From positions 1 to 33,478 of the forward strand of contig NZ_VUMI01000063.1 in the NCBI RefSeq assembly GCF_009696275.1: 33,478 nucleotides of DNA. Direction: 5' to 3'. This DNA is from Eisenbergiella porci (GTDB taxonomy: Bacteria; Bacillota; Clostridia; Lachnospirales; Lachnospiraceae). The notes beneath the pieces are model-generated. The model saw nothing but the letters and a program-made list of their open reading frames with translations, did not search any database and was not told where the DNA came from. Below are positions 11,641-27,371 of the stretch, in pieces (the stretch's first letter is position 1; each line of letters begins with the position of its first letter). The position numbers and the translations under genes were made by a program.

Positions 11641-11656
11641 AAAGGAGATGATACCA

Positions 11657-12166: not shown

Positions 12167-12199
12167 AGGTACCCGGTTGGCTGAACTGGGTACCTTTTT
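12167..12199 (+). terminator. Intrinsic terminator or attenuator before the tRNA
   Basis: AGGTACCC (12167-12174) pairs perfectly with GGGTACCT (12188-12195); four more inner pairs (GGTT with AACT, one wobble) leave a five-base loop, and a run of five T follows (12195-12199). A smaller hairpin AAGTG/CACTT lies just upstream (about 12133-12149). If the late promoter is at 12086-12124, this terminator is in the leader and needs read-through for the tRNA and late genes to be made. Confidence 0.75.
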
Positions 12200-12785: not shown

Positions 12786-13271
12786 AGGAGCAAAAACAGG
12801 AAGCCATTAGAACGGCAGTCCGGGAACCTTACAAAAGAGGAAAAAGAGCGGAAAATGCTGGAAGAGCAAAGCGTCATAACAGGCATGGAGGATATAGGAA
12901 GGCCCCCATCGTGGCTGATAAATACTATAGCTAAAAAAGAGTATAAAAGGGTATTAAAAGACCTGAAAACAATAGAGATTATTGGAAACCTTGATTTGTC
13001 TAACTTGGCCGGATACTGTAACGCATATGCCATGTACCGGAAAGCAACAGAACAGCTTTCAGGGCAGGATCTTATTGTAGTAAAAGTATCCGCACAGGGA
13101 ACGGAGTATGAGGGAGAAAACCCATTAATCATGATACAGAAAAAATATGCGGAGGAAATGCGCAAGTTTGCATCCATGTGCGGCCTTACGATAGACAGTA
13201 GGTTGAAAGCGGCAGCAATTAAGGTGGACAGGGCAGAGAATGAGATAGAGGAGGAATTCGGTGATATTTGA
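12786..13271 (+). CDS. terS: Terminase small subunit (P27 family), AGG start
   Basis: The protein (161 residues from AGG 12786) has the P27-type beginning SKNRKPLERQSGNLTKEEKE, then GRPPSWL, LDLSNLAGYCNAYAMY and a C-terminal FASMCGLTIDSR-KAAA segment. It recognises viral DNA and partners with the large subunit. GGAGG (12775-12779) is six bases before AGG, and family members begin M-(A/S)-x-x-x-K-P-L at this point. The only canonical upstream start, TTG 12768, has no SD and lies before the SD itself. Initiation at AGG is inferred. Confidence 0.85.
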   Translation, partial: RSKNRKPLERQSGNLTKEEKERKMLEEQSVITGMEDIGRPPSWLINTIAKKEYKRVLKDLKTIEIIGNLDLSNLAGYCNAYAMYRKATEQLSGQDLIVVKVSAQGTEYEGENPLIMIQKKYAEEMRKFASMCGLTIDSRLKAAAIKVDRAENEIEEEFGDI

Positions 13272-15028
13272 TGGAAATAAAGGAAGAGCTGATCCAATAT
13301 TCCAGGGACTGCCTGGAGGATAAGGTTCCATCTGGAAAAAAACATAAACAGGCATGTCAGCGATTCCTGCGCGATTTGGACCTAATAGGGGAAGAGAGTT
13401 TTCCGTATATCTGGGATGAAGAAAAAGCAGGGAAAATTGTGAAGTGGTTTTCGTATCTGCGCCATTCCAAAGGGGAACTGGCCGGAAAGCCTATTCTATT
13501 GACTACATGGCAGAAATTTTTCCTCTGCCAGTTATACGGGTGGAGACATAGAGATACAGGTTATAAGCGGTTTAAAAAATCATTTGTCGAAGTTGCAAGG
13601 AAAAATGCAAAATCACAGATGGAGGCTGGGGTGGCACTGAATGAGATTTCAGAACAGGCCACGCGCAACGGGGAGGTATACGAGTACTACACTGCGGGTG
13701 TAAAGCGGCAGCAGTCAAAAATTATATTCAATGAATGCCGGCTGATGCTGCGGGGATCCCCATTAAAACTAAAGTTTAAAATAACACGGGATATCATTGA
13801 ACATAAAAAAACAGGAAGTTTTATCCTCCCGTTAAGCAAAGAGGATGGGAGATCCGGTGACGGGACAAACCCGGCGGGGCTTATTCTTGACGAATACCAC
13901 CAGCATACAACAACAGATTTTTACGATCTGGGGCTGGGGGCAGCGACAAAGGAACCGCTTCTGATGATTATCACAACGGCAGGTAAAGATTTAAACTGCC
14001 CGTGCTATATCGAAGAATACTCATACTGTTCAAAAATTCTGGATCCGGATGTGGATGTGCATAACGACAACTATTTTGTGGATATCTGTGAAGCGGATGA
14101 CTCAGATGATCCAGAGGATATACGGACGCTGCAGAAAGCAAACCCAATCCGCGCTTTTTTCGATGCGGGTATTGCAAGGCTGCGGGAAGAATGGGAAATT
14201 GCAAAAGAAATCCCTGAAAAACTGATATCTTTTAAAACAAAATGTCTGAATATCTGGATGCAGGCTACGGAAAACGGTTACATGGACATGGCGAAATGGA
14301 AAGCCTGTGAAGTGGTTAGCCTTCCAATAGATACCAGGAACAGGCCGGTATATGTGGGATTTGATATGTCGGCAAAAATAGATTTAACATCCGTAACTTT
14401 TATTATTCCGTTCCAATCTGAGGAATTGGATAAACAGGGGAACAGGGTTGTTAAGTATATTGTATTTTCACACAGTTTTATTCCGTCGCAGGAAAAACTG
14501 CAGGAGCATATACGAAAGGATAAGGCACCGTATGATTCATGGGTAAGGAGGGGATGCCTGGAAATTACTAACAGCCCGATTGTGGATCAAGGCCGTGTAA
14601 TGGAATATGTGCTTCAGACATGCGCGGAAAATGGATGGAAAATACAATGCCTGTGCTTTGATCCATCAAACGCCAACAAGCTTATGAGTGACTTGTCGGA
14701 TGAAGGATATACCGTGGAAGAAGTATTCCAGTCGCAAAAACATTTGAATGAAGCGACACAGGGATTCAGGGAACAGGTATATTGCAAAAATGTAATTTAC
14801 CTTCCAAATCCGCTCCTCAATTATGCCATGAGCAATGCAGTCATCCGGCAGAGCAACGGTATGATTAAGATTGATAAGGACGCAACCACAAAAAGGATAG
14901 ATCCTGTAGATGCAACATTATGCGCCTACAAACTGGCATTATACCATGACTTCAGCGCTGAGGATTATTCAGATTATTTGGAAAGATATCTAAAGGAGAT
15001 GCAGCAAGGAAAATCACAAACAGAATAA
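13271..15028 (+). CDS. terL: Terminase large subunit
   Basis: This is the 585-residue packaging motor. The ATPase part has a Walker-A-like ARKNAKSQ near residue 110 and Walker B GLILDEYH near 203. The C-terminal RNase H-like nuclease has FDMSAKIDLT near residue 363 and late acidic residues in DPVDATLCAY. ATG 13271 overlaps the small-subunit stop as TGATG; TTG 13268 is an alternative. No in-frame AGG is near the start, so this gene uses ordinary initiation, unlike its neighbours. Confidence 0.93.
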   Translation: MEIKEELIQYSRDCLEDKVPSGKKHKQACQRFLRDLDLIGEESFPYIWDEEKAGKIVKWFSYLRHSKGELAGKPILLTTWQKFFLCQLYGWRHRDTGYKRFKKSFVEVARKNAKSQMEAGVALNEISEQATRNGEVYEYYTAGVKRQQSKIIFNECRLMLRGSPLKLKFKITRDIIEHKKTGSFILPLSKEDGRSGDGTNPAGLILDEYHQHTTTDFYDLGLGAATKEPLLMIITTAGKDLNCPCYIEEYSYCSKILDPDVDVHNDNYFVDICEADDSDDPEDIRTLQKANPIRAFFDAGIARLREEWEIAKEIPEKLISFKTKCLNIWMQATENGYMDMAKWKACEVVSLPIDTRNRPVYVGFDMSAKIDLTSVTFIIPFQSEELDKQGNRVVKYIVFSHSFIPSQEKLQEHIRKDKAPYDSWVRRGCLEITNSPIVDQGRVMEYVLQTCAENGWKIQCLCFDPSNANKLMSDLSDEGYTVEEVFQSQKHLNEATQGFREQVYCKNVIYLPNPLLNYAMSNAVIRQSNGMIKIDKDATTKRIDPVDATLCAYKLALYHDFSAEDYSDYLERYLKEMQQGKSQTE

Positions 15029-16287
15029 AAAATGCATGGAATGAACTTGTAAAGCCGGCTGTGTCACTGGAAGATGAAGAGCTGATGAAATGGTTGGGGA
15101 TAGATCCGGCAAAGCAGAAAGCAATCAATGAAGTAACATACTACACATGCCTGAAAATGTTATCTGAGACAATGGGGAAACTCCCGTTGAAATTTTACAG
15201 GACGGAAGGGGAGGGTAGGGTACGGGCGGATCCGGAAGATGGAATCAGCCTGCTAATAAACCGTCCGAATCCGGTAATGACACCAGCGACCTTCTGGACA
15301 ACGATAGAAGCCAATTGCCAGCATTACGGAAACGGGTTTGCGTGGATCCAGACAGTATATATCCCAGCACGGGGAAAGTACGGCGGGGAATATAAAATTA
15401 AATCATTCTGGCCGATGCAGTCAAATTATGTGCAGGTAATTATGGACGATACAGGTTTGTTTGGGAATGCCGGAAAGCTATATTACCGTTACAGCGATCC
15501 AAAAACAGGAAAGACCTATATTTTCCCGCAGGAAAATGTACTGCACTTCAAGACATGGTGTAGTTTTGACGGGATTATGGGGAAATCTGTGCAGGAAATT
15601 CTACGGACAACCGTGGATGGCCTGGGAGAATCCCAAAATTACCTGAATAACCTATATAAACAGGGGCTTACTGCCTCTATGGTATTGCAATACACGGGAG
15701 ATCTGGATCCAAAGCTGCGGAGAAAGCTGCAGCAGGAATATACGGAGCTGATGTCCGGGCCTAAAAATGTGGGGAAAGTGGTTCCTGTCCCTGTAGGGCT
15801 TACACTGCAGGCGCTAAATATAAAACTGACAGACGCACAGTTTTATGAATTGAAAAAGTACACGGCACTGCAGATTGCCGGGGCATTCGGGATTAAGCCA
15901 AACCAGATAAATGATTATGAAAAATCAAGTTACGCGAACAGCGAAACACAGCAGCTTGCATTTTTAGTGGATACCATGCTTTACCGGCTGACGCAGTATG
16001 AACAGGAAATTAATTATAAATGCCTGACAGAAAAACAGCGGGAAGAAGGATACTTTTCAAAATTTAATGAAAAGGCCTTGTTAAGGACAGACGCAAAAAC
16101 ACAGATGGATGTGATAAAAACTGCTGTAAATAATGGGATTTATACACCAAATGAGGCGCGTAGCCTGCTGGATTACCCTGCAAAAGAAGGGGGAGAGGTA
16201 CTGATTGTAAATGGGAATTATGTTCCATTAACGATGGTGGGAGTAGCTTACATGACGAAAGGAAGTGAAGGTGAAGGGCAGAAGTAG
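15007..16287 (+). CDS. Portal protein, AGG start
   Basis: The HK97-type portal has 426 residues from AGG 15007. It forms the dodecameric ring at the capsid vertex. Recognisable parts are KNAWNEL near the start, LEDEELMKWLGID, YTCLKMLSETMGKLPLKFYR, INRPNPVMTPATFW and the C-terminal KYTALQIAGAFGIKPNQIN. AAAGGAG (14992-14998) is eight bases before AGG-AAA-ATC. Between the upstream stop (14959) and AGG there is no ATG, GTG or TTG; the first canonical codon, GTG 15061, lacks an SD and would remove the first 18 residues, including the KNAW motif. Confidence 0.9.
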   Translation, partial: RKITNRIKNAWNELVKPAVSLEDEELMKWLGIDPAKQKAINEVTYYTCLKMLSETMGKLPLKFYRTEGEGRVRADPEDGISLLINRPNPVMTPATFWTTIEANCQHYGNGFAWIQTVYIPARGKYGGEYKIKSFWPMQSNYVQVIMDDTGLFGNAGKLYYRYSDPKTGKTYIFPQENVLHFKTWCSFDGIMGKSVQEILRTTVDGLGESQNYLNNLYKQGLTASMVLQYTGDLDPKLRRKLQQEYTELMSGPKNVGKVVPVPVGLTLQALNIKLTDAQFYELKKYTALQIAGAFGIKPNQINDYEKSSYANSETQQLAFLVDTMLYRLTQYEQEINYKCLTEKQREEGYFSKFNEKALLRTDAKTQMDVIKTAVNNGIYTPNEARSLLDYPAKEGGEVLIVNGNYVPLTMVGVAYMTKGSEGEGQK

Positions 16288-16940
16288 ATATTAGAGGGGA
16301 TATCGTATCAAACGATGACAAATGGATTTATGAATGGCTGGGATGGGACGCAGTAAGCCCGCACGATATAAAAACAGTGATGGACGGTCTGCAGCCTGAG
16401 GAAACTTTAACGGTGCTTGTAAATTCCGGTGGAGGCTCTGTCATGGCAGCGCAGGAAATCTATTCCATGCTGCGGGGCAGGAAAGATGTGGAAATAAAAA
16501 TCCAGTCGATGGCAGGTTCTGCGGCCTCAGTCATAGCTATGGCCAACCATTCGGAAATAAGCCCGGTTGCAATGCTGATGATACATAACGTTTCTATGTC
16601 GGGCGCATCCGGGGATTACCACGACATGCAGAAAAATGCTGAAATCCTAAAAAAAATGAATTCTGCTTTAGCATCTGCGTATGTGGAAAAGACTGGAAAA
16701 ACAGAGGAAGAAATTTTAAAAATGATGGACCGGGAAACCTGGATAAATGCCAACCAGGCATTAGAACTGGGGTTTGTAGATGCCATTACGCAGGATAGCG
16801 TAGTTATGGTAAATACCGTATCCGGTATGCGCCTGACGGATGAAATACGGCAGCAGGTGACAGCAGAAAAGCAGGCAAAGGACCGGGAAGAGGAAGAAAA
16901 GAAACTGTTATTATATGATTTAGACTTTTACGGAGTCTGA
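16275..16940 (+). CDS. ClpP-like prohead protease, AGG start
   Basis: The 221-residue capsid-maturation protease has the ClpP fold: DIRGDIVSNDDKWIYEW at residues 5-21, NSGGGSVMAAQEIYSML, the catalytic serine in GSAAS (about residue 85), the His in MIHN (about 104) and a basic-acidic tail. It overlaps the portal end. TGA 16272-16274 lies immediately before AGG 16275, and the first canonical start, GTG 16377, is residue 35, after the conserved beta-strand. GAAAGGAAG lies 10-11 bases upstream. This is the clearest AGG-start case in the window. Confidence 0.9.
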   Translation, partial: RAEVDIRGDIVSNDDKWIYEWLGWDAVSPHDIKTVMDGLQPEETLTVLVNSGGGSVMAAQEIYSMLRGRKDVEIKIQSMAGSAASVIAMANHSEISPVAMLMIHNVSMSGASGDYHDMQKNAEILKKMNSALASAYVEKTGKTEEEILKMMDRETWINANQALELGFVDAITQDSVVMVNTVSGMRLTDEIRQQVTAEKQAKDREEEEKKLLLYDLDFYGV

Positions 16941-16955
16941 GAAAGAGAGGAAACA

Positions 16956-18116
16956 ATGAATAAAAAACTTCTGGAAATGCTGGACGCTATTAAAGCAGCA
17001 AAGGAAAAGGTTACCAATCTGGTAAATGAAAACAAGCTGGAGGAAGCAAAGGCGGCAAAAGAGGAACTGAAAAATCTGCAGGAACAGTTTGACATTTTAA
17101 AGGACGTTATGGATCCGGAAGGAACCGGAGAAATCACAGACCCTGGAGTGCTGAATGGGATTCCGGCTGGGGAAAAGGATTCCACAAAGGAATTTGCCAA
17201 TGCGGCAAGGGAGGGGTTCCGCAATACAATGGAGGAAGGCGTGCCGGCTGACGGAGGGTATACCGTTCCTGAAGATATCCAGACGCGCGTTAATGAATAC
17301 CGGAGCGCAAAAGCATCCCTGATTGAACTGGTCGATGTGGAAAACGTAACTACCAATAAAGGCAGCAGGACTTTTAAAAAACGCGCACAGCAGACCGGAT
17401 TTTCAAAAGTGGCAGAGGGAGGGAAAATCGGGGCAAAGCCTACGCCGCAGTTTGAACGTCAGGACTATGAAATCGCAAAATATGCCGGTTACCTGCCGGT
17501 TACCAATGAACTGCTTGCGGATACGGATGCCAACATCACAGGGACACTTGTCAGCTGGCTGGGGGACGAAAGCCGAGTGACCCGTAACAATATTATTCTG
17601 GGGGTAGCCAAAACAAAAACAAAAGAAGCTGTTGCAGGCCTTGATGATATCAAAAAAGTGCTGAATGTTACTCTGGGGCAGGCATTTAAGTCTACTTCAC
17701 GGATTGTTACAAATGATGATGGCCTGCAGTGGCTGGATACCCTGAAAAATGATAAGGGGGAATATCTTCTGCAGCCGAACCCTGCGGATCCGATGCAGAT
17801 GAGGCTTTGCGCGGGAGCAACTATTATCCCGGTAACTGTGCTTCCTAATCAGGATTTTCCTTCAGATACAGCAACGTCCGGACACCGCAAGATTCCGTTC
17901 CTGATCGGTGACCTGAAAGAAGGAATCAAGTTCTACGACAGAAATTTAATGTCGATTATGACTTCCAATATTGCGGCAATCGGGAGTTTGAACGCATTTG
18001 AAGAAGATTTAACAATTTTCCGTGCCATTGAACGAGAGGACTGCAAGATTAAGGATTCCGAAGCATTTGTATATGCAGAAATGGATTTATCCGATGCCAG
18101 TGTAACGGGGGAATAA
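16956..18116 (+). CDS. Major capsid protein (HK97 fold)
   Basis: The 386-residue protein has an N-terminal coiled-coil scaffolding/delta region (AIKAAKEKVTNLVNENKLEEAKAAKEEL), which the protease removes, and an HK97 core from about residue 90 (GGYTVPEDIQTRVNEYR, RTFKKRAQQTGF, KIPFLIGDLKEGIKFYDR). It builds the head shell. ATG 16956 follows GAGAGGAAAC, a standard start. The next coding part starts without a clear start codon in the -1 frame (see the HeH entry). Confidence 0.93.
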   Translation: MNKKLLEMLDAIKAAKEKVTNLVNENKLEEAKAAKEELKNLQEQFDILKDVMDPEGTGEITDPGVLNGIPAGEKDSTKEFANAAREGFRNTMEEGVPADGGYTVPEDIQTRVNEYRSAKASLIELVDVENVTTNKGSRTFKKRAQQTGFSKVAEGGKIGAKPTPQFERQDYEIAKYAGYLPVTNELLADTDANITGTLVSWLGDESRVTRNNIILGVAKTKTKEAVAGLDDIKKVLNVTLGQAFKSTSRIVTNDDGLQWLDTLKNDKGEYLLQPNPADPMQMRLCAGATIIPVTVLPNQDFPSDTATSGHRKIPFLIGDLKEGIKFYDRNLMSIMTSNIAAIGSLNAFEEDLTIFRAIEREDCKIKDSEAFVYAEMDLSDASVTGE

Positions 18117-18172
18117 ACAGCTATAGCCTGGGAAGCGGGAATCCCGCGCCGGCGGACGGAGAGCTGCAGGGC

Positions 18173-18286
18173 ATGACGGTCAGCGCCCTGAAAGACCTGG
18201 CAGCTGCGCAGGGCTATAGCATTACAAGAACAAAAAAAGCTGACATTATAGAAGAAATTTTGAGTCAGGAGGCGCAGCATGGATAA
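18173..18286 (+). CDS. HeH/LEM-like short protein or frameshift tail
   Basis: The frame encodes TVSALKDLAAAQGYSITR and TKKADIIEEILSQEAQ, a HeH/LEM (SAP-like) motif that commonly follows the capsid gene in Firmicute phages. ATG 18173, with ACGGAGAG nine bases upstream, gives 37 residues. The frame is open back into the capsid gene and adds a Gly/Ser/Pro-rich linker, but no ATG, GTG, TTG or AGG precedes ATG 18173. It may instead be a C-terminal extension of the capsid made by -1 frameshifting, or start at ATA 18113. Confidence 0.5.
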   Translation: MTVSALKDLAAAQGYSITRTKKADIIEEILSQEAQHG

Positions 18287-18581
18287 GCAGAAAGTAAAGG
18301 AATACCTGCGCGTTGATTTTGACGAAGATGACGGAATTATTGAACAGATGATGCTGGCAGCTGAAAATTATATTATTTCCGCTGTAGGGGAATACGACAG
18401 CAGTAATGAAAAAGCGAACATGCTTTTTATGGCAATCGTACAGGATTTGTACGATAACCGTACGCTGATGGTTACAGAACAGCAGAAAAAAAGAATGTCA
18501 TATACTTTTGCATCCATAATCCTTCAGCTGCAATTAGAATGTCAGGAGGTGGCGGAAGGGGAATTAATCCGGGAAGGCTGA
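18279..18581 (+). CDS. Head-tail connector (gp6-like, head completion)
   Basis: The 100-residue protein (MDKQKVKEYLRVDFDEDDGIIEQMMLAAENYI) matches the phage gp6/YqbG-like connector family, an alpha-helical ring subunit below the portal. ATG 18279 follows AGGAGG, and overlaps the HeH frame's end. Its own 3' end overlaps the next gene. Confidence 0.85.
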   Translation: MDKQKVKEYLRVDFDEDDGIIEQMMLAAENYIISAVGEYDSSNEKANMLFMAIVQDLYDNRTLMVTEQQKKRMSYTFASIILQLQLECQEVAEGELIREG

Positions 18582-18916
18582 AAAAACGCATTACCATCAT
18601 GCGGTATCAGGATACAGAAAATTCCCTTGGAAACCTTGTATCACAGCTTCTTCCGTACAAAACAGTATACGCGGAAATCAGGCCGGTGAGAGGGAAAGAA
18701 TACCAGGAGTATTACAAGGATACAAACAGTCTGGAATATAAAATAACCATTCGTTTTCTGCCGGATCTGCAGCCTGCGGATGTATTGGTATATCATGAGA
18801 AACAATTCCTGATAAACAGCATCATTAACGTAGAGGAACAGGGATACATTCAGGAAATCATGTGTACAGAAAAACTGCAGGACAAAAAAGCGGAGGTGAT
18901 AGCCGGTGGCAGTTGA
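18557..18916 (+). CDS. Head-tail adaptor (closure protein), probable AGG start
   Basis: The 119-residue protein begins GINPGRLKKRITIM and contains VYAEIRPVRGKEYQEYYK, FLPDLQPADVLVY and FLINSIINVEEQ, the pattern of Ad2/SPP1 gp16-type head closure proteins. Family members start M-x-x-x-x-L-x-x-R-I-T-I. AGG 18557 is seven bases after AGGAGG (18544-18549). An in-frame ATG at 18539 exists but lies before the SD and adds a Gly-rich hexapeptide, so the AGG start is preferred, with less certainty than for the protease. Confidence 0.85.
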   Translation, partial: RGINPGRLKKRITIMRYQDTENSLGNLVSQLLPYKTVYAEIRPVRGKEYQEYYKDTNSLEYKITIRFLPDLQPADVLVYHEKQFLINSIINVEEQGYIQEIMCTEKLQDKKAEVIAGGS

Positions 18917-19325
18917 TTTCATGGTGAAAGGCCTGGACGATCTGCAGAAGGATATTGAAGAGTTGATTTCCAAATACCCGGATGAAACGAATGCAAAAAT
19001 GAAACAGATCGGAAAAGAGTTTACAAAAGATTGCAATTCACAGATGCCGCCTTCTTACAAAAAGGGAAAAAGGCCAATTCCTAAAAGTTGGAAAGTCACT
19101 GTGGATGAAGAAAGGCATGTTGCAACACAGACATATATTAAAAATACAGCTCCGCACTTCCATCTTGTAGAAAACGGCCATAAAAAATGGATTAATGGAG
19201 TTGACACAGGCGGTACTGTTCCCGGGAAACATTACGCAGAAAAAACAAGTCATGAATATGAAGAAAAATTCCCGGATGAAATCGAAGCATTCCTTGATGA
19301 AATGTTGAAAGGGAACAAGTTATGA
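18906..19325 (+). CDS. HK97 gp10-like head-tail joining protein
   Basis: The 139-residue protein has the gp10-type pattern: FMVKGLDDLQKDIEEL at the start, TKDCNSQMPPSYKKGK, then HFHLVENGHKKW and a C-terminal LDEMLKG. The GTG start at 18906 follows GGAGG (18892-18896) by nine bases and comes one codon after TAG, so GTG is used. It probably joins tail tube and head. Confidence 0.85.
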   Translation: MAVDFMVKGLDDLQKDIEELISKYPDETNAKMKQIGKEFTKDCNSQMPPSYKKGKRPIPKSWKVTVDEERHVATQTYIKNTAPHFHLVENGHKKWINGVDTGGTVPGKHYAEKTSHEYEEKFPDEIEAFLDEMLKGNKL

Positions 19326-19765
19326 CAGGCTACGGCGATCTGATATGGGAACTTAACAGTCTGCTGAAAAAGAAGTATCCGGACGTTAAAATTTACGGGA
19401 ATGATACAACAGAAGGATGGAGAAAACCATATTTTTTTCTGGAATGTGTGCCATACGGCATGAATTATGTGTCACGGAATTTCATAAAAAAATCATGCAG
19501 CCTTAAAATCACTTATTTTCAACGGGTGCCAGATGAACCGGATCAACTTCAAAAAGTAGAAGAAATCCGGGAAATGATAGGGATGAAGTTCTGCGTAAAG
19601 GATCGGAAACTTGATATTAAGGAATATACCCATGATTACGTGGGGGAATACAACAACATTCTTCAGATTACTCTTGATTTGGAATGGTTTGAAAATTGTT
19701 ACAAAGAACCTGAGGAAGAGAAAATGAAAGAAATAGAGTTGTCAGTGAAAGAAAGGAGAAAATAA
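19322..19765 (+). CDS. Tail terminator / tail completion protein
   Basis: The 147-residue product (GYGDLIWELNSLLKKKYPD, YGNDTTEGWRKPYFFLECVPY) resembles the phage tail terminator family (DUF6838 and YqbJ-like proteins), located between the gp10-like gene and sheath. ATG 19322 overlaps the previous stop as TTATGA. Its own TAA (19763-19765) overlaps the next start as TAAGG, an exact analogue of the usual TAATG. Confidence 0.75.
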   Translation: MTGYGDLIWELNSLLKKKYPDVKIYGNDTTEGWRKPYFFLECVPYGMNYVSRNFIKKSCSLKITYFQRVPDEPDQLQKVEEIREMIGMKFCVKDRKLDIKEYTHDYVGEYNNILQITLDLEWFENCYKEPEEEKMKEIELSVKERRK

Positions 19766-20826
19766 GGGGAGCGCCAGCAATTAACATTATTTTTATCGAA
19801 AAAGCAGAAACAGCGGCACGGAGAGGGGAAAGGGGGATTGTTGGTCTGGTATTGAAAGACAGTACCGAAATGAAAGCAACACTCTTCCCGAATTCAGAAA
19901 TGCCTGAGGGCCTGAGTGCAGATAATCAGGAATTGATTAAGTTTGCGCTGACGGGATATGAAACAACGCCGAAAAAAGTACTTCTGTATGTGATGGATTC
20001 TGCGGGAGAAATTGCAGACGAATACGCGAAGATGCTTAAGTATTTTGAAACCGTGACGGTTAACTGGCTTGTTTTTGCATCCGTAAAAGAGGACAGCAAA
20101 ACAGCGGATATCGTAGAATGGGTGAAGAAACAGCGGCAGGAGAAAAGGACAGTGAAAGCAGTCCTTCCCAGTGTGGCAGCGGATACGGAAGGCATTGTGA
20201 ATGTAGATTCCAGCCTTTTTATTGGGGAAAAAGAGTATCCCCCGGGAAAAGCGGCGGTAAGGGTTGCCGGCCTGCTTGCGGGGACGCCGATCACAATTTC
20301 CTGCGCTTATGCACCGCTTAGGGATTTTACGGACTGTACAAGGCTGGATAGGGCAGCCATGGATACAGCTGTGGACGCCGGGAAATTTATTTTCCTGTGG
20401 GACGGTGAAAAGGTAAAAGTATGCCGGGGAGTAACCAGCCTGACTACGGTATCTGAAACCAAGGGAAAAAGCTTCAGCAAAATAAAAATTGTGGAAGCTA
20501 TGGACATGATACAGGATGATATCACAATCACGGTACAGGACAATTACATTGGGAAATATCCAAATACCTATGATAACAAATGCCTGTTGATTACCGCGAT
20601 CAATGAATATTTCAATGAATTGGCCAGGAGCGGCGTCATCCAGTCAGGAATCTGTGAAATTGATATCCAGGTACAGAGAAAATATCTGGAAGAAAATGGT
20701 GTTGATACACAGGACATGAGCGACCAGCAAATAAAAGAAGCCAATACAGGTTCCCACGTATTTTTAAGGGCCACAGTATCGATCCTTGACGCTATTGAGG
20801 ATATCGATCTGAATATCTATATTTAA
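19765..20826 (+). CDS. Contractile tail sheath protein (XkdK-like), AGG start
   Basis: The 353-residue protein from AGG 19765 opens with GAPAINIIF and a RGERGIVGLVLKD motif, the standard sheath N-terminus, followed by YETTPKKVLLYV and the C-terminal sheath domain ending DIDLNIYI. It is the contractile sheath. AAAGGAG (19752-19758) is six bases before AGG. From the upstream TGA (19711) to residue 30 (TTG 19852) there is no ATG, GTG or TTG, and starting at residue 30 would remove the conserved N-terminal strand. Confidence 0.92.
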   Translation, partial: RGAPAINIIFIEKAETAARRGERGIVGLVLKDSTEMKATLFPNSEMPEGLSADNQELIKFALTGYETTPKKVLLYVMDSAGEIADEYAKMLKYFETVTVNWLVFASVKEDSKTADIVEWVKKQRQEKRTVKAVLPSVAADTEGIVNVDSSLFIGEKEYPPGKAAVRVAGLLAGTPITISCAYAPLRDFTDCTRLDRAAMDTAVDAGKFIFLWDGEKVKVCRGVTSLTTVSETKGKSFSKIKIVEAMDMIQDDITITVQDNYIGKYPNTYDNKCLLITAINEYFNELARSGVIQSGICEIDIQVQRKYLEENGVDTQDMSDQQIKEANTGSHVFLRATVSILDAIEDIDLNIYI

Positions 20827-20837
20827 GGAGGCACGGC

Positions 20838-21266
20838 ATGGAAGGATTTTTAGCAGATAATGTGATAAATGGAAATTGGGGGGAAATGTGGTTTAACAGC
20901 CAGTATATGGCTGAAGTAATTTCCCTGAAAGCGGAGCTGAATATCAAGTATGAAGCGGTTACACGGACAAGGCATTTGATTGATGGCCAGAAAATGACAG
21001 GGATAGAAGGGAAAGGCGAATTCAAATTACATAAGGTTTCCTCTTTTATTATGAAGCAGGTTTCGGAGGCTTTGAAGCAGGGGAAATCACCTACATTTAC
21101 AATCATTTCAAAGCTTGCAGATCCGGATAGTTTCGGAGGGGAACGAATTGCTTTATACGGATGCAAACTTGATAAATCAATCCTGGCAGACTGGGAAGCA
21201 CGGAAAAATGGGGAGGAATCGTATTCCTTCACATTTGAGGATTGGGAAATACTCGACAGCATCTGA
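20838..21266 (+). CDS. Tail tube protein (XkdM-like)
   Basis: The 142-residue protein (MEGFLADNVINGNWGEMWF, then AEVISLKAELNIKYEAV) matches the XkdM-type inner tube family. It polymerises inside the sheath. ATG 20838 follows AAGGAGG, a standard start, 12 bases after the sheath stop. Confidence 0.9.
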   Translation: MEGFLADNVINGNWGEMWFNSQYMAEVISLKAELNIKYEAVTRTRHLIDGQKMTGIEGKGEFKLHKVSSFIMKQVSEALKQGKSPTFTIISKLADPDSFGGERIALYGCKLDKSILADWEARKNGEESYSFTFEDWEILDSI

Positions 21267-21283
21267 AAAGGGGGGAATAAAGA

Positions 21284-21688
21284 ATGAATTTAGCTGAAAA
21301 ACTGATGAAATTGGATCGTGGGAAGCTTACTGAGATTCCCACGGGAACAATGGAAATTAAAAGACTCTCAGAAATGATGGGGGAACCATTCATTGTAAAA
21401 TGCAGGGCAATACCGGGGGAAAGATATACCGAGCTTTCAACGCAGATTATTGGGGATAACGGTGAAGCGGATTACGGGAAAGTATACAGCACAAGTACCC
21501 TTATTGTCGTAGAGGGCATAATGGAACCTAACCTGAAAGACCCGGAACTACTTAAACATTTTGGATGCGCAACGCCGAAAGATTTGGCGGGAATTCTGTT
21601 CCAGGGTGGAGACATGCAGAAAGTTTCTGACCTTATTACAGATCTAAGCGGATTCGGGGATGATACTGATAAAAAAATAAAAAACTGA
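21284..21688 (+). CDS. Tail assembly chaperone, short product (XkdN-like)
   Basis: The 134-residue short chaperone is positioned between tube and tape measure. ATG 21284 follows GGGGGG. Its last codons are AAA-AAC-TGA, preceded by A: the heptamer A-AAA-AAC at 21679-21685 is a canonical -1 slippery site directly before the stop. The long product continues in the -1 frame to 21852, giving about 189 residues. Such paired G/GT products chaperone the tape measure. Confidence 0.85.
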   Translation: MNLAEKLMKLDRGKLTEIPTGTMEIKRLSEMMGEPFIVKCRAIPGERYTELSTQIIGDNGEADYGKVYSTSTLIVVEGIMEPNLKDPELLKHFGCATPKDLAGILFQGGDMQKVSDLITDLSGFGDDTDKKIKN

Positions 21689-21852
21689 TTAACACTGATC
21701 CGGAAGTCCGTCTGATGTATCTGTTATTCCGTGACAAGGGATGGAAACCGTCTGATTATTTTGATATGCCGGAAAGCGATAAACGTATAACAAAAATATT
21801 TATGATAGAAGAGCTGCGCGAACGGGGAAAAGAGGTGGACGCTAAGGAGTAG
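21685..21852 (+). CDS. Frameshift extension of the tail assembly chaperone
   Basis: The -1 frame from the slippery heptamer encodes 55 residues, including EVRLMYLLFRDKGWKPSDYF and IFMIEELRERGKEV, and stops at TAG 21850-21852. It has no SD or convincing start of its own (only an SD-less ATG at 21715), so it is expected only as the C-terminal part of the frameshifted chaperone. It overlaps the tape measure start. Confidence 0.8.
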   Translation: MINTDPEVRLMYLLFRDKGWKPSDYFDMPESDKRITKIFMIEELRERGKEVDAKE

Positions 21853-24058
21853 GACAATAGATGCCATTTTGAGGCTGAGGGATGAATTCAGTGGTAATCT
21901 GGGAAAATCTGTGCAGGCAATGACGAATGCATCCAGAACGGCCGTAAAAATATCCAGGGATATCGAACGGGCAGGGCAGGGTATCACGAACGTAGGAAAA
22001 GGCCTGGCTGCATCAGTAACGACCCCTATTATTGGAGTCGGGGTTGCGGCTGGGAAAATGGCATTGGATTTTGAGGACGGCATAGCGAAAGTATCCACAA
22101 TAGCAGATACAACAGCAATGAGTATGGACAATATACGTCAGGGAATAATTGACCTATCCAACCAGACAGGGATAGCGGTAACGGAAATATCGGAAGCGCA
22201 GTACCAGGCAATTTCTGCAGGGGTAAAAACAGCGGAATCCCTGAAAGTGGTGGAGACAGCAAGCAAAGCGGCAAAGGCCGGTTTTACGGATACCGCAACG
22301 GCAATTGACGGCCTGACCACCGTATATAATTCATATCAGGGTGCGGTTGATTATAGTGCCATTGCCGATCAGATGATGATGACGCAGAATTATGGGAAAA
22401 CAACTTTTGGTGAACTTGCGTCCAGCATGGGACAGGTAACGCCGGTTGCCAATGCGTTAAACGTATCCTCACAGGAACTGTTTTCTTCTATCGCGGTATT
22501 AACTAAAAACGGCATAAATACATCCCAGGCGGTTACTGGAATGAAAGCGGCATATTCTAATATCCTGAAGCCTACGGCAGATGCGCAGAAAGAAGCAAAA
22601 AAACTGGGGTTGGAATTTAATGCAGCCCACTTAAAATCTGTCGGATGGGCGCAGTTCATGGCAGAAATCAGTGAAAAGACAGGCGGGAATACGGAATCTA
22701 TGGCCAAGCTGTTTGGCTCTGTGGAAGCCCTGAATTCTATGACAGTCCTTGCAGGCGCCGGATTCGGTGATTTTAACACAGCCCTTGGAATGATGAATAA
22801 ATCCGCAGGGCTTACGGAACAGTCCTATAAAAAAATGATAACGCCGGCGGAACGCTGGAATATCACTTTAAATAAAATAAAAAATGCGGGAATAAAAGTC
22901 GGTGAAAAGCTGATTCCAACTTTCGAAAAGATTACTGGCATGGTGGAAAAAGCAGCTGATAAATTCAACGGCCTGTCTGATTCCCAGGTGGAAATGGTTA
23001 TTAAGATTGCAGGTATCGCGGCAGCAGTCGGCCCGGCGGTTATCGTATTCGGGAAACTTGTTACAGGTGTAGGAAAGGGGCTGCGGATATTTAATACCCT
23101 TTCAAAAACAGTGAAAGCGGCAGGAAGTATCTTTTCCTTGTTAACGTCTCCGGTTGCTATTGTGGTGATTGGCCTGGTGGCTTTGATAGCGGCGATTGTT
23201 TTGGTAATCAAAAATTTTGACAAAATAAAAGCAGCGGCAAAGCAGTTTGCTTCACATTTTACCAGCGAATTTTCTGCAGTGAGGGGAATCATACAGCAGG
23301 TAAAAAATATTTTTGGTTCGGTAGCCCCTTACTTTCAAGCAGTGGTGGCTAAAATAGGCCCCATGATTGCAAGCATTAAATCATTCCTGCAGCCGATACT
23401 GTCTTTTATAGGTTCCGTTTTTATAACAAAAATAAAATTTGGATTCCAGAATGTAATTAGTTTTGTTACTGCGTTTGTAGGACAATTAGGAACAATTTTA
23501 CACGGGGTTACAACGGTATTGGATGGGATAATCACATTCATCACAGGCGTTTTTTCCGGGAACTGGTCGCAGGCATGGGAAGGAGTACAGAAGATTTTCA
23601 GCGGCGTGTTTGAAGCAATTACCGGGATTGCAAAGGGTGTTATTAATGGCGTAGCATCTGTAATCAATAATGTAATTAGCACGATCAACGGTATGGGATT
23701 TACAATACCGGAATGGGTGCCGAAGATAGGCGGGAATACATTTTCGCTAAATATACCTACGATTCCGATGCTGGCAAAAGGGACAAAATCATGGCCAGGC
23801 GGTATTGCAGGAGTACATGAGCGTGGCGGTGAAATTATTGATTTGCCGCGTGGCAGCAGGGTATATCCTCACGACGAATCATTGCGCATGGCCCGCAGGG
23901 AAGGGGCTGCAGCCGGGAATATCACTATAGCCAAACTTGCGGATGAAATTATTATCAGGGAAGAGAGCGATATTAATAAAATGGCGGAGGCACTGGTGCA
24001 GAAACTGTCAAAAGCACGCGTGAATATGGGAGGAAGTTACAAGGGAAGTATGGCTTAG
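21845..24058 (+). CDS. Tape measure protein, AGG start
   Basis: The tape measure has about 737 residues. It begins SRTIDAILRLRDEFSGN, followed by a helical region (SVQAMTNASRTAVKIS), a TP901-type core, hydrophobic segments near residues 375-395 and 435-455 (VAIVVIGLVALIAAIVLVI) and a C-terminal end with GVHERGGEIIDLPRGSRVYP. It sets tail length and may pass into the host membrane. AGG 21845 is six bases after GAGGTGG; AGG 21833 or 21851 are alternatives. No ATG, GTG or TTG lies between the upstream stop (21806) and TTG 21869, which has no SD. Confidence 0.88.
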   Translation, partial: RSRTIDAILRLRDEFSGNLGKSVQAMTNASRTAVKISRDIERAGQGITNVGKGLAASVTTPIIGVGVAAGKMALDFEDGIAKVSTIADTTAMSMDNIRQGIIDLSNQTGIAVTEISEAQYQAISAGVKTAESLKVVETASKAAKAGFTDTATAIDGLTTVYNSYQGAVDYSAIADQMMMTQNYGKTTFGELASSMGQVTPVANALNVSSQELFSSIAVLTKNGINTSQAVTGMKAAYSNILKPTADAQKEAKKLGLEFNAAHLKSVGWAQFMAEISEKTGGNTESMAKLFGSVEALNSMTVLAGAGFGDFNTALGMMNKSAGLTEQSYKKMITPAERWNITLNKIKNAGIKVGEKLIPTFEKITGMVEKAADKFNGLSDSQVEMVIKIAGIAAAVGPAVIVFGKLVTGVGKGLRIFNTLSKTVKAAGSIFSLLTSPVAIVVIGLVALIAAIVLVIKNFDKIKAAAKQFASHFTSEFSAVRGIIQQVKNIFGSVAPYFQAVVAKIGPMIASIKSFLQPILSFIGSVFITKIKFGFQNVISFVTAFVGQLGTILHGVTTVLDGIITFITGVFSGNWSQAWEGVQKIFSGVFEAITGIAKGVINGVASVINNVISTINGMGFTIPEWVPKIGGNTFSLNIPTIPMLAKGTKSWPGGIAGVHERGGEIIDLPRGSRVYPHDESLRMARREGAAAGNITIAKLADEIIIREESDINKMAEALVQKLSKARVNMGGSYKGSMA

Positions 24059-24077
24059 ACAAGGCGGAAACGAGGTA

Positions 24078-24677
24078 AGGATACCAGTGCTGCCTTCCAA
24101 TTATAATGTGACATCCGGACAGAAAAACAAAGTAATTAACATCAATGCGCTGGGAGAAATCAACCTGATAGGAAACAGGGGATTGACGGAAATAAGTTTT
24201 TCTTCCTTTTTCCCTTATGCCTATCAGACCTATTGTGAATACTCGCCGGTGCAGCCGCCAAAGGCATATGTGGACTCTATCGAGGCTATGAAAAGGGCGG
24301 GAGATGTGCGCCTGACGATTACAGGGACATCCATTAATATGATGGTGACAATTGAAAGCTTCCAACACGCCGAAGAAGATGGAAGCGGTGATGTTTCGTA
24401 TACGCTGGAATGCAAAGAGTACAGGTTGCCAAATGCGGAAGATACAAATCCGGGAGTGAGTACGCTTGATACATCCAGGGAAATGCCGCCGGCAAATGAA
24501 ACAGTCAGTTATCTTGTAAAAAAAGGTGACTGCCTCAGTGCAATAGCAATGAGGCTGACAGGGAAAGCGGACTGGAAAACATTGTATGAACAAAACAAGG
24601 ATGTAATAGGGGGGAATCCAAACCTGATACATCCAGGGCAAACCTTATTAATATCGGGGGCGAGAAAAGGAACATAA
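24078..24677 (+). CDS. LysM baseplate protein (XkdP-like), probable AGG start
   Basis: The 199-residue protein has an N-terminal baseplate part (LPSNYNVTSGQKNKVININ, EINLIGNRGL) and a C-terminal LysM domain (VKKGDCLSAIAMRL, IGGNPNLIHPGQTLLI) that binds peptidoglycan. It corresponds to XkdP. AGG 24078 is ten bases after AAGGCGG. GTG 24087, only three codons later, could also serve, so this case alone does not prove AGG initiation. Confidence 0.88.
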   Translation, partial: RIPVLPSNYNVTSGQKNKVININALGEINLIGNRGLTEISFSSFFPYAYQTYCEYSPVQPPKAYVDSIEAMKRAGDVRLTITGTSINMMVTIESFQHAEEDGSGDVSYTLECKEYRLPNAEDTNPGVSTLDTSREMPPANETVSYLVKKGDCLSAIAMRLTGKADWKTLYEQNKDVIGGNPNLIHPGQTLLISGARKGT

Positions 24678-25639
24678 AACTTTTCAAGAGAAATGGAAGC
24701 CAATACGACATTACACAAATGGCCGAATCGATAGAGTGGGGCGGAGATATAACCTCAGCCGCGAGAACTGCGGATGTGAGCATTATTAATGCCCCATATG
24801 ACCCAAATATGAACCGGATGCCGGAAATAGCATCCGGGGATTATATTTCCATGGAAGATGGAAATGAGTTATTTTATGGACAGTTCCGGGGTATCGAACG
24901 ATCCAGCGAAACAGGGACAATTACATATAATGCATCCGACATAATGATCCATCTGCTGAATTCCAGGGGGAAATATAATTTTAAAAATCTTTCCCCGGAA
25001 GAAATCACACTGATGGTATGCCGTGATATTGGAATGGAAACAGGGCAGATTGCATCAACAGGAATTATTATCCCATCCATGTTATGTGACAGCGATTCTT
25101 ATTATGACATAATCATGAAAGCGTATACAAAAGCCTTTATGGTAAACGGGATAAAATATATGTGTGCAATCAAAAACAGGAAATTAGATGTCATTGAAAA
25201 AGGAAAACAAGCATATGGGATTACACTTTCGGATAAAGTGAACCTGTATAACGCTTCCATTTCTGAAAGTACAGAAGCGGTCATAAACCAGGTAAAAATA
25301 TATGACGGGCAAGGGAACCAGATCGGGGAGGTACGGGACGAATTAAGCATTGCAAAATATGGGATGTTTCAGGAAAATTACACAGCGGAATCAGGAATCG
25401 ATCCAAACACAGCCGCAAGAAACCTGATAAAGGAGCCGGAACAGACCCTTAGCATAGAAGCAATAGGGAATATCAACTGCACGGCGGGAAACGCAGTCAC
25501 TGTAAAGGACGCCGCGACACAGATGCAGGGATTGTATTGGATTAAGTCTGACCGGCATACCTGGCAGGGCGGAGTCCATACAATGCAGCTGGATTTGATA
25601 TTTAAGGACATGATGGATGCAAAAGGCATGGGGGAGTGA
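24668..25639 (+). CDS. Baseplate hub protein (XkdQ-like), AGG start
   Basis: The 323-residue protein from AGG 24668 reads NIKLFKRNGSQYDITQM, MAESIEWGGDI, TADVSIINAPYDPN and ends in a gpD-like fold (WIKSDRHTWQGGVHTMQLDL). It corresponds to XkdQ, part of the hub. GGGGG (24656-24660) is seven bases before AGG, which lies in the end of the previous gene. The first canonical start, ATG 24719, has no SD and would remove the first 17 residues, a strand conserved in the family. Confidence 0.88.
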   Translation, partial: RNIKLFKRNGSQYDITQMAESIEWGGDITSAARTADVSIINAPYDPNMNRMPEIASGDYISMEDGNELFYGQFRGIERSSETGTITYNASDIMIHLLNSRGKYNFKNLSPEEITLMVCRDIGMETGQIASTGIIIPSMLCDSDSYYDIIMKAYTKAFMVNGIKYMCAIKNRKLDVIEKGKQAYGITLSDKVNLYNASISESTEAVINQVKIYDGQGNQIGEVRDELSIAKYGMFQENYTAESGIDPNTAARNLIKEPEQTLSIEAIGNINCTAGNAVTVKDAATQMQGLYWIKSDRHTWQGGVHTMQLDLIFKDMMDAKGMGE

Positions 25640-25643
25640 CACA

Positions 25644-25949
25644 ATGAGCGCATTTGAGGATTTAATAGGAATCATGCAGGAGGAGGGGGAGAAAAATAAT
25701 CCTACAGGCACGCAGCTGGGAGTTATGACCGGGCCGAACACGTGTGATGTTGACGGGCTTTCCCTGATGGCAGAGGATTTATTTTTTGCGGAGCATTTAA
25801 TTCATCCGGTTGCCTTTAAAGTAAAAATCAATGAAGATGGCACGGACGGCAGCGAATACCTTGAGCCGCTAAAAAAGGGAGATATTGTAGCCGTAAAAAA
25901 AATCAGTGACAGCCAGTACCTTGTGCTTGGAAAGATGGTGAGCCTATGA
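25644..25949 (+). CDS. Baseplate protein XkdR-like (DUF2577)
   Basis: ATG 25644 is seven bases after GGGGGAG; the frame is open upstream but this start is the natural one (MSAFEDLIGIMQEEGEKNNP). The 101-residue protein matches DUF2577, a small baseplate component between XkdQ and XkdS. It has a beta-rich C-terminus (KKGDIVAVKKISDSQYLVLGK). Standard ATG. Confidence 0.87.
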   Translation: MSAFEDLIGIMQEEGEKNNPTGTQLGVMTGPNTCDVDGLSLMAEDLFFAEHLIHPVAFKVKINEDGTDGSEYLEPLKKGDIVAVKKISDSQYLVLGKMVSL

Positions 25950-26344
25950 GTATTTTCCCCACATTTGCAGAAAAAGAAAAGCCTGTAAAGACGATAGACA
26001 TACCACGGGAATATGGAATAGATTTTGAAACAGGGGAACTGACAGGGGAAATTGTGGAAGGGCTTGAGGCGCTTAAGGTATGGATATGGATTTGCCTTAA
26101 GGTGGAACGGTTTCGGTATCCTGCATATTCATGGGTTTACGGTTCAGAATTGGAACAGTATATCGGGAAGGCTTATTCTGACGAATTTATTCAATTTGAT
26201 GCGCCGCGTGCCGTGGAGGAAGCATTGAAAGTGAATCCGCACATTCAGGGAATTAAGGATTTTGAATCGATCATAGATGGGGAAAAACTGAGAATGTCTT
26301 TTACAGTAATCAGTGATATAGGGGAGGCGAGTATAAAGGTTTGA
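25946..26344 (+). CDS. Baseplate protein XkdS-like (DUF2634, gp25-related)
   Basis: The 132-residue protein (MSIFPTFAE start; YPAYSWVYGSELEQYIGK in the middle) matches DUF2634, a gp25-like wedge protein that nucleates sheath assembly. ATG 25946 overlaps the previous stop (ATGA). Its last 8 bases overlap the AGG start of the next gene. Confidence 0.88.
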   Translation: MSIFPTFAEKEKPVKTIDIPREYGIDFETGELTGEIVEGLEALKVWIWICLKVERFRYPAYSWVYGSELEQYIGKAYSDEFIQFDAPRAVEEALKVNPHIQGIKDFESIIDGEKLRMSFTVISDIGEASIKV

Positions 26345-27371
26345 AAATCAGACATATGAGCGTATTTTAAAGTCTCTCCGTGAAAGAGTGCCGCAGAAAG
26401 TATCTACTACGGAAGGGACATTAATACATAACGCGCTTGTGCCAGCAGCTTATGAGATCGAAAAAAATTATATTACAGCGGATGTTATATTACAGGAAGT
26501 ATTTACGGATACCGCTTCCAGAGAAAATTTAGTAAGGCGTGCCAAGGAAAGAAACATATATCCTCATCCGGCAACGGCAGCTGTTTGGAAAGGAACTTTT
26601 GTGCCTGAAGATTTGGATGTTCCCAATGGGACCAGATTTAATGGAGGAAAGTTAAATTTTGCTGTTATTGGAAGAGTACAGAATGGGTATGAACTTATAT
26701 GTGAAACGGTTGGAAGCCAGGGAAATGCGTGCCGTGGGAGTATCACACCAATCCGATACCTGCAGGGATTTAAGTCAGCCGAACTGACGGAACTGATTAC
26801 CCAAGGAAATGACGAGGAGGAAACGGAGGCCTTCAGGGAACGTTATCTGACCATACTCCGGAAACCATCCACCAGCGGAAATATCTACGATTATTATAAT
26901 TGGGCTATGGCCTGTAAAGGGGTAGGAGCTGCCAAAATATTCCCGTTGGCCTATGGTCCCGGCACAGTTAAGGTGGTTGTGGCCGATGAGGATAAAATGG
27001 CGGCTACGCCGGCCTTAATAAAGGAAGTCAAAGATTATATTGAAGAAATGCGGCCTATCGGCGCCACGGTCACAGTAGCATCGGCGCAGGAGCTGCCAGT
27101 CAACGTCATGGGGAGAGTAAAGCTTAAGGATGGAATAAACCTCGGTGCAGCGCAGGCTTCCTTCCGGGAAACTTTTGATACATTTTTGCGGGACAACGCC
27201 TTTGACATCTCCTATGTCGGATACGCCCGCGCGGGGAACATCCTCCTGGGGACTACCGGCGTAGAGGATTACGCAGGCCTTACCATAAACGGCTATGAGC
27301 ACAACATAGAGCTTACGGATGAGCAGATAGCGGTCATCGGAACGGTGACACTGGAGGTGATGGGGGAATGA
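26337..27371 (+). CDS. Baseplate J-like protein (XkdT-like), AGG start
   Basis: The 344-residue wedge protein starts FENQTYERILKSLRERVP, followed by EGTLIHNALVPAAYE and the baseplate J core (TRFNGGKLNFAVIGR, EETEAFRERYLTILRKPS). TAA 26334-26336 is immediately before AGG 26337, and GGGGAGG (26321-26327) is nine bases upstream. The first canonical start, GTG 26388, is residue 18 and would delete the YERIL helix conserved across the family. This is a second very clear AGG case. Confidence 0.92.
   Translation, partial: RFENQTYERILKSLRERVPQKVSTTEGTLIHNALVPAAYEIEKNYITADVILQEVFTDTASRENLVRRAKERNIYPHPATAAVWKGTFVPEDLDVPNGTRFNGGKLNFAVIGRVQNGYELICETVGSQGNACRGSITPIRYLQGFKSAELTELITQGNDEEETEAFRERYLTILRKPSTSGNIYDYYNWAMACKGVGAAKIFPLAYGPGTVKVVVADEDKMAATPALIKEVKDYIEEMRPIGATVTVASAQELPVNVMGRVKLKDGINLGAAQASFRETFDTFLRDNAFDISYVGYARAGNILLGTTGVEDYAGLTINGYEHNIELTDEQIAVIGTVTLEVMGE

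What the first reader, a model, noticed from the sequence alone, without database searches (positions are those of the whole stretch)
12786..26339. Nine late genes have AGG at the start codon position
AGG sits exactly where homologues have ATG, usually 6-10 bases after an SD: small terminase 12786, portal 15007, protease 16275, adaptor 18557, sheath 19765, tape measure 21845 (or 21833/21851), LysM 24078, XkdQ-like 24668, XkdT-like 26337. For portal, protease, sheath, XkdQ-like and XkdT-like, no canonical start preserves the conserved N-terminus; small terminase has only an SD-less upstream TTG. Adaptor and LysM have weak alternatives. AGG after an SD in so many genes, together with a CCU initiator tRNA, is unlikely to be chance. 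Genes upstream of the tRNA use ATG/GTG.
Basis: partly seen in the sequence, partly recalled or inferred. Interest (0 to 1): 0.98.

Follow-up and report, generated by a model that had tools for sequence, protein, structure and literature searches.

The report
Phage with its own start codon
A bacterial virus appears to carry a changed starter tRNA that lets it begin several particle-building genes at the codon AGG instead of ATG, and other viruses seem to have made the same kind of switch with other codons, a way of starting proteins that I otherwise found only in engineered systems.

Summary
The observation largely holds. Nine late genes have AGG at or near the place where relatives start. Seven are well supported; XkdQ and the adaptor are weaker, and the LysM start must be moved from 24078 to AGG 24042. 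The tRNA at 12217-12291 (anticodon CCU) has the initiator marks A1xA72 and A11:U24, whereas the host has an ordinary elongator tRNA-Arg(CCU).

Relatives with such a tRNA swap AGG and ATG gene by gene. The stretch between AGG and the next canonical codon evolves as coding sequence (pN/pS 0.30 against 0.29). Other phages carry initiator-type tRNAs with CUU, CGU, GUU or UAU, and virion genes there start at AAG, ACG, AAC or ATA. Orphan AGG starts: 23 of 59 genes in CCU carriers, 9 of 472 in controls. Nucleotide 37 of these tRNAs tends to pair with mRNA base -1 (37 of 43 private starts, 33 of 93 ATG starts). Some carriers show no private starts.

Best reading: phage-encoded initiator tRNAs create private start codons for virion genes. 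The starting amino acid and the advantage are unknown. My literature searches listed engineered systems only.

The parts
12217..12291 (+). initiator-type tRNA, anticodon CCU, U37, no encoded CCA
   Evidence: ARAGORN, Rfam tRNA 55.1 bits, A1xA72, A11:T24, anticodon stem CCAGT/GCTGG
12164..12199 (+). terminator-like hairpin followed by T run, just before the tRNA
   Evidence: fold of 12160-12200: -23 kcal/mol, z -5.7; not listed by the simple consensus scan
11648..12085 (+). DUF1492 / phrog_36 transcriptional regulator, probable late regulator
   Evidence: Pfam, PHROGs; role in late transcription is inference
12310..12708 (+). small gene between tRNA and terminase, HNH-like by the look of its residues, ATG start
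   Evidence: ORF; relatives aligned with ATG; no Pfam match at 0.001; HNH name is mine
12786..13271 (+). small terminase, AGG start
   Evidence: phrog_83; aligned ATG in 5 of 7 non-carriers, AGG in L400 and L424; SD-less TTG 6 codons upstream
15007..16287 (+). portal, AGG start
   Evidence: phrog_12; AGG in L054, L400, L424; no canonical codon upstream, next at +18
16275..16940 (+). head maturation protease, AGG start
   Evidence: phrog_94; ATG at the aligned codon in L054, L400, L056; stop just before AGG
18557..18916 (+). head closure protein (adaptor), probable AGG start
   Evidence: phrog_25; AGG in L055, L400, L097; not aligned with canonical starts of 15 non-carriers
19765..20826 (+). 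tail sheath, AGG start
   Evidence: phrog_1480, profile matched from position 2; canonical codon aligned in 14 of 17 non-carriers
21845..24058 (+). tape measure, AGG start
   Evidence: phrog_991; canonical codon aligned in 10 of 13 non-carriers, AGG in L400, L424, L097
24042..24677 (+). LysM protein, AGG start at 24042 (not 24078)
   Evidence: phrog_380; ATG or TTG aligned in 12 of 12 non-carriers, ATG in L400 and L424
24668..25639 (+). XkdQ-like tail protein, probable AGG start
   Evidence: phrog_400; ATG in L400, GTG in L422 at the aligned codon; next canonical codon at +17
26337..27371 (+). XkdT-like baseplate wedge, AGG start
   Evidence: phrog_6; canonical codon aligned in 5 of 5 non-carriers, AGG in L400; stop just before AGG

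Best explanation
The phage encodes an initiator-type tRNA whose anticodon is CCU instead of CAU. Charged by a host synthetase and formylated, it enters the ribosomal P site and pairs with AGG behind a Shine-Dalgarno sequence, so that AGG is a private start codon for about nine head, tail and packaging genes; internal AGG still means arginine through the host's own tRNA. Pairing is probably extended to four base pairs, since U37 can pair with A at mRNA position -1. Shown by comparison: tRNA type, start positions, match of codon to anticodon across phages, and the 37/-1 trend. Inferred: charging, formylation, P-site use, and why it is kept. I think most likely that a spare phage initiator changed its anticodon, that start codons then drifted one by one, and that the tRNA became indispensable once essential genes depended on it.
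For: Initiator marks. AGG at aligned starts in relatives with the tRNA and gene-by-gene exchange with ATG: protease ATG in L054, L055, L400 but AGG in the window; capsid AGG in L055, L400, L056, L057, L424 but ATG in the window; small terminase ATG in L054; LysM ATG in L400. In L400 small terminase and portal have no canonical codon for 82 and 52 codons after AGG, in L055 capsid none for 92. pN/pS 0.30 (165 codons) against 0.29 (2682 codons). Codon follows anticodon: AGG 23 of 59 with CCU, 0 of 20 with CUU, 0 of 11 with CGU, 1 of 14 with GUU, 9 of 472 controls; AAG 8 of 20 with CUU against 35 of 472; ACG 5 of 11 with CGU against 19 of 472. ATA small terminase in a UAU carrier aligned with annotated ATG starts of two isolate phages. 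Base -1 complementary to nucleotide 37 in 37 of 43 private and 33 of 93 ATG starts. Nearest phage relatives of the tRNA by BLAST are, where annotated, tRNA-Met. Engineered initiators with new anticodons work in E. coli (PMC2268962, passages).
Against: No protein or RNA data. The tRNA lacks the three G:C pairs 29-31:39-41, although only 30 of 114 CAU initiators parsed here have the GGG/CCC form. ATG and AGG genes are mixed in one operon. Carriers without private starts: L404 (CGU) and L413 (CUU), whose portals do not start at the cognate codon; L033 (CCU), with an ATG major head gene; UAU carriers other than L258, and CAG, CAC, GAC, CCA carriers. L012 shows too little downstream. The 37/-1 match is weak in L399 (A37: 5 of 9 against 5 of 13 ATG starts) and fails in L026 and in L412 (A37, two AGG starts with A at -1). 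Adaptor and XkdQ starts are uncertain.
Confidence: 0.92

Rival explanations
1. AGG is not a start: the proteins begin at canonical codons further down, or at upstream ones without SD, or by coupling with the gene before; AGG is only SD-like sequence.
For: Small terminase and adaptor have an SD-less TTG or ATG 6 codons upstream; overlapping genes make coupling possible; AGG is part of SD sequences. The adaptor does not align with canonical starts of relatives.
Against: pN/pS between AGG and the next canonical codon equals that of the rest; relatives with the tRNA have no canonical codon for 52 to 92 codons; the codon changes with the anticodon in other phages.
Confidence: 0.05
2. AGG is read by the host's ordinary fMet tRNA because of strong SDs, and the phage tRNA is an elongator or a relic without a part in it.
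For: Weak initiation at unusual codons is known (PMC10158994 cites such work; passages).
Against: In vitro, first and second codon base need Watson-Crick pairs (PMC10158994), which CAU with AGG lacks; the tRNA has initiator, not elongator, marks and the host has its own tRNA-Arg(CCU); start codon follows anticodon across phages.
Confidence: 0.02
3. About its use: the private codon serves as a lock that ties virion proteins to a late phage RNA, so that they are not made before the tRNA is present. This accepts the best explanation and rivals the ratchet.
For: In the window, L399, L402 and L411 the tRNA stands just before the late genes. The genes concerned are head, tail and packaging genes.
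Against: tRNA and genes seem to share one operon, so the delay may be short; in L403/L266 private-start genes, portal included, lie upstream of the tRNA; the set of private genes changes between close relatives.
Confidence: 0.25
4. About its use: the changed anticodon loop resists toxins that cut initiator tRNA (VapC type), so that virion genes are still translated when the host initiator is destroyed. This also accepts the best explanation.
For: VapC targets tRNA-fMet, and phage tRNAs with changed anticodon loops are proposed to evade such defences (PMC10264068 and PMC12482277, passages). Pair 31:39 and nucleotide 37 are changed along with the anticodon.
Against: Essential genes that keep ATG in the same operon would still fail. 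I looked for no such toxin in the hosts.
Confidence: 0.15
5. Sequencing or assembly error, or RNA editing that restores AUG.
For: None found.
Against: The same codon at the same places in independent records (IMG/VR contigs, L. defluvii genome, G136), with other codons in phages with other anticodons.
Confidence: 0.01

Closest known systems
Engineered initiator tRNAs with changed anticodons (U35A36 for UAG, G34C36 for GUC, PMC2268962; sets in vitro, PMC10158994 and PMC13232202)
   Same: initiator body, new anticodon, initiation at the cognate codon; AAG/CUU and AUA/UAU work well in vitro
   Different: natural, phage-encoded, matched with many natural genes; nucleotide 37 and pair 31:39 also changed; UAG-reading engineered form is charged with Gln, here the amino acid is unknown
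Phage-encoded CAU initiator tRNAs (for example Clavibacter phage CN1A)
   Same: same tRNA body, in several cases close to terminase or head genes
   Different: CAU anticodon and A37 in 113 of 114 parsed; no private codon expected
Phages with reassigned stop codons and suppressor tRNAs (recalled, not searched)
   Same: a phage tRNA changes the meaning of codons, often in late genes
   Different: there elongation at stop codons is recoded; here only initiation
Rare natural start codons read by ordinary fMet tRNA (such as GTC in sigR, PMC5472188, listing only)
   Same: non-AUG start behind an SD
   Different: single genes, read by the CAU initiator; no dedicated tRNA

Membership tests
bacterial initiator tRNA (tRNA-fMet) | no Watson-Crick pair at 1:72 | tested here: met
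   A1xA72. Not universal among phage CAU initiators: T1:A72 in 22 of 114
bacterial initiator tRNA (tRNA-fMet) | A11:U24 in the D stem | tested here: met
   but GAG was required by the parser and by the search pattern, so it is a finding only for the window tRNA itself
bacterial initiator tRNA (tRNA-fMet) | three G:C pairs 29-31:39-41 | tested here: not met
   AGT:GCT in the window
bacterial initiator tRNA (tRNA-fMet) | anticodon CAU, charging with methionine | tested here: not met
   anticodon CCU; charging not testable here. So it is of initiator type and works like one, but is not filed as tRNA-fMet
bacterial initiator tRNA (tRNA-fMet) | formylation and P-site entry with IF2 | not testable with these tools
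   needs biochemistry
elongator tRNA-Arg(CCU) | paired 1:72 and the elongator D arm seen in the host's own copy | tested here: not met
   phage copy A1xA72 and A11:T24; host copy reads TAGCTCAG...GAGC

The most novel reading that the evidence does not exclude
Phages of several lineages have privatised translation initiation: an initiator tRNA with a changed anticodon and a matched nucleotide 37 reads a four-base start (such as A-AGG, A-AAG, A-ACG, A-AUA), so that virion genes can be started only when the phage tRNA is present, and their proteins begin with an amino acid other than methionine, set by the new anticodon.
Probability: 0.45. Interest if true: 0.98.

Novelty: categorically new. Interest (0 to 1): 0.96.

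Why it matters
The start signal of translation is held to be nearly fixed; natural recoding known to me (recalled) concerns stop and sense codons. A natural, repeated change of initiation through a changed initiator tRNA would show how a start signal can be rewritten, would offer start codon and tRNA pairs made by evolution, and would mean that gene callers miss or truncate virion genes of such phages, because no usual start codon is there.

Tried and rejected
LysM start at 24078: rejected after alignment. Tape measure at 21833 or 21851: 21845 fits relatives and SD spacing. SD scan as sole evidence: rejected; it gives chance hits (window 24608), misses XkdQ, and fails in L414, where 4 of 27 genes have an SD-preceded canonical start. 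L057 portal 'ACG': AGG one codon later has the SD. L419 portal 'ACG': GTG three codons before it is a likely start, read from sequence. Portal as a rule without exception: rejected; 11 of 13 carriers with an annotated portal have a cognate start, L404 and L413 do not. T1:A72 or A37 as a sign of non-users: rejected, since L026 (T1:A72 by eye) and L399 (A37) have AGG starts. tRNA BLAST in the phage collection gave 48, 83, 59 and 7 records; I opened 18: 17 have CAU and one CAA, two of the CAU cases read by eye because ARAGORN reported no tRNA there (L430, L459). Portal and capsid of L402 in phage isolates were too distant at the start, likewise the L399 head gene. Genome survey with a strict pattern: only this genome among 391 of the class; it also missed the diverged copy of G136, so it undercounts. 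The output was cut in the middle (adaptor and neighbours); one search repeated the nine genes as counts.

Papers: passages of PMC10158994 and its section 6; passages of PMC13232202, PMC9841429, PMC12588516, PMC12482277, PMC10264068, PMC2268962; all others only as search listings. None of these ten searches listed a natural non-CAU initiator tRNA with cognate start codons; the library lacks most subscription papers and bioRxiv as a whole. The extended-pairing study of Esposito and others was seen only as a reference entry.
Full report
What is there. The window is one contig (G000:C110) of a 6.1 Mb draft genome and reads as a phage with a sheathed tail. Aligned with relatives, seven genes start well at AGG: small terminase, portal, protease, sheath, tape measure, LysM and XkdT. 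LysM starts at 24042, not 24078: relatives read MEIWLKQG with ATG or TTG at the aligned codon in 12 of 12, the window REVWLRQG behind GGGAGG. XkdQ is weaker, and the adaptor weakest: relatives start 2 codons later or 3-4 earlier, so AGG rests on its SD and on L055 and L400, which have no canonical alternative before codon +14. All nine have A just before AGG. Other late genes use ATG or GTG.

The tRNA. ARAGORN and Rfam find a tRNA at 12217-12291, anticodon CCU. It has A1xA72 and A11:U24, marks of initiators, but not the three G:C pairs of the anticodon stem. The host draft has an ordinary tRNA-Arg(CCU) with the elongator D arm, so the phage copy is not needed for internal AGG, of which the nine genes hold 37. 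No CAU initiator was found in the draft by strict patterns; of 45 tRNA matches only the 30 fetched were read for anticodons. I take that for a gap, unproven.

Relatives. L054, L004 and L055, the closest portal relatives in IMG/VR, carry such a tRNA and have AGG at aligned starts; so does a prophage of Lacrimispora defluvii PI-S10-B5A (L400). The codon changes gene by gene: protease AGG in the window, ATG in L054, L055, L400; capsid ATG in the window, AGG in L055, L400, L056, L057, L424; small terminase ATG in L054; LysM ATG in L400. For L056, L057 and L097 the contig ends before the tRNA region, so their tRNA is unknown. Of 299 genomes searched in the family, 8 including the window's own have a sheath homologue at E 1e-30. 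Of the seven fetched, L424 has AGG starts and a diverged CCU tRNA (T1xT72, A11:T24); no CCU tRNA was found in the stretches of the other six, and the sheath aligns with ATG in five of them and with a start two codons upstream in L425.

Is the stretch after AGG translated? Between window and L400, 165 aligned codons between AGG and the first canonical codon have pN/pS 0.30, the other 2682 codons of these genes 0.29. In L400 small terminase and portal, and in L055 capsid, no canonical codon follows AGG for 82, 52 and 92 codons. In window protease and XkdT a stop stands directly before AGG.

Other phages, other codons. Patterns for the initiator body with anticodons other than CAU found further tRNAs in IMG/VR (anticodons). 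With CUU: in L402 small terminase, portal, major head, tail and tape measure genes start at AAG; in L411 small terminase, portal, head and tail tube do, the tape measure less surely. With CGU: portal (L266), tape measure and other head or tail genes (L403) start at ACG. With GUU: one gene of unknown function starts at AAC (L405, L408). With UAU: L258 has a small terminase at ATA, aligned exactly with annotated ATG starts in Ruminococcus phage RG-TP1 and Lactococcus phage 50901. L399, an unrelated CCU phage, has nine AGG candidates after the tRNA, among them portal, major head and tape measure. L414, where few genes have SDs, has a tape measure that starts at AGG next to the tRNA. Of 13 distinct carriers with an annotated portal, 11 have it at the cognate codon (window, L054, L400, L424, L399, L013, L045, L412, L402, L411, L266) and two do not (L404, L413).

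Numbers. Among genes without an SD-preceded canonical start, SD-positioned AGG occurs in 23 of 59 (12 CCU contigs), 0 of 20 (CUU), 0 of 11 (CGU), 1 of 14 (GUU) and 9 of 472 (108 controls: 80 contigs with a CAU initiator, 28 relatives); AAG in 8 of 20 with CUU and 35 of 472; ACG in 5 of 11 with CGU, 3 of 14 with GUU and 19 of 472; AAC in 3 of 14 with GUU and 16 of 472 (Fisher for the first three pairs 2e-17, 1e-4, 7e-5). The GUU case is too small to weigh. Some contigs are related, so the values are guides. The UAU, GAC, CCA and CAG groups show no such set in this count, nor do the two CAC contigs.

Nucleotide 37. Of 114 distinct CAU initiators parsed, 113 have A37; of 15 with CCU, CUU, CGU or GUU, 9 have T, 2 C, 4 A (L026, L033, L045, L054 were not parsed by that script). 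In phages with T37, A precedes 31 of 33 private starts and 28 of 79 ATG starts. Over all types the -1 base fits nucleotide 37 in 37 of 43 private and 33 of 93 ATG starts (Fisher 3e-8); L408 was left out as a near copy, only three AGG starts of L400 entered, and L054, L424, L412, L414, L258, L266 were not in this count. With homology-called starts of window, L054, L400, L424, A precedes 22 of 25 AGG and 14 of 37 canonical starts (counted by me). L399 (A37) shows little, L026 and L412 do not fit. So the four-pair model is likely but less sure than AGG initiation. Pair 31:39 is pyrimidine-G in 14 of 15 against 13 of 114; I cannot explain it.

How it most likely works. The tRNA lies behind a terminator-like hairpin and a DUF1492 regulator, at the head of the late genes. 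It is charged, formylated, carried to the P site and pairs with AGG. Engineered initiators with new anticodons do this in E. coli and are charged by the new anticodon (Gln for UAG, Val for GUC; PMC2268962, passages); in vitro AAG/CUU and AUA/UAU gave more full-length product than AUG/CAU (PMC10158994). By that logic these virion proteins may begin with arginine, lysine, threonine, asparagine or isoleucine; this is inference.

Why it exists. I favour a ratchet: phages carry spare CAU initiators, some close to terminase or head genes; one changes its anticodon, start codons then drift one by one, and the tRNA becomes essential. Timing, or resistance to toxins that cut initiator tRNA, could add selection. 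The gene-by-gene exchange of AGG and ATG between close relatives fits the ratchet best.

Noticed in passing
L424:1-60: The contig begins with what looks like a sequencing transposon adaptor (recalled), so the assembly end is artificial (sequence).
   Followed up: no
L426:2871-2947 (MT835577): Initiator-type tRNA with anticodon CAA in a human gut phage contig, which would read TTG starts.
   Followed up: partly
L415, L416, L417, L418, L272-L278: Initiator-type tRNAs with CAC or CAG anticodons, which would read GTG or CTG; no set of CTG starts was seen in L415, L416 and L278.
   Followed up: partly
L054:1146-1221: This CCU tRNA has C at the place of the otherwise constant U33 (read), and L054 keeps AGG in fewer genes; it may be decaying.
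   Followed up: no
L057 and L097: These relatives with unknown tRNA often have G before AGG (portal and protease in L057, adaptor and sheath in L097); if nucleotide 37 matters, their tRNA may have C37.
   Followed up: no
window 7780-11230: A leader-like motif GAGGATTTA is repeated before several small early genes (seen in the sequence).
   Followed up: no
window 5707-6840: A complete DUF4317 gene (Pfam 3.7e-160) among early phage genes.
   Followed up: no
L428:6606-6682, L432:6000-6076, L431:6001-6077: CAU initiator tRNAs in Clavibacter phage CN1A, Myoviridae sp. ct7L0027 and Erythrobacter phage ZS04 that the records do not list.
   Followed up: partly
all private-type tRNAs: Pair 31:39 is pyrimidine-G in 14 of 15 private-type tRNAs and in 13 of 114 CAU initiators; reason unknown.
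   Followed up: partly
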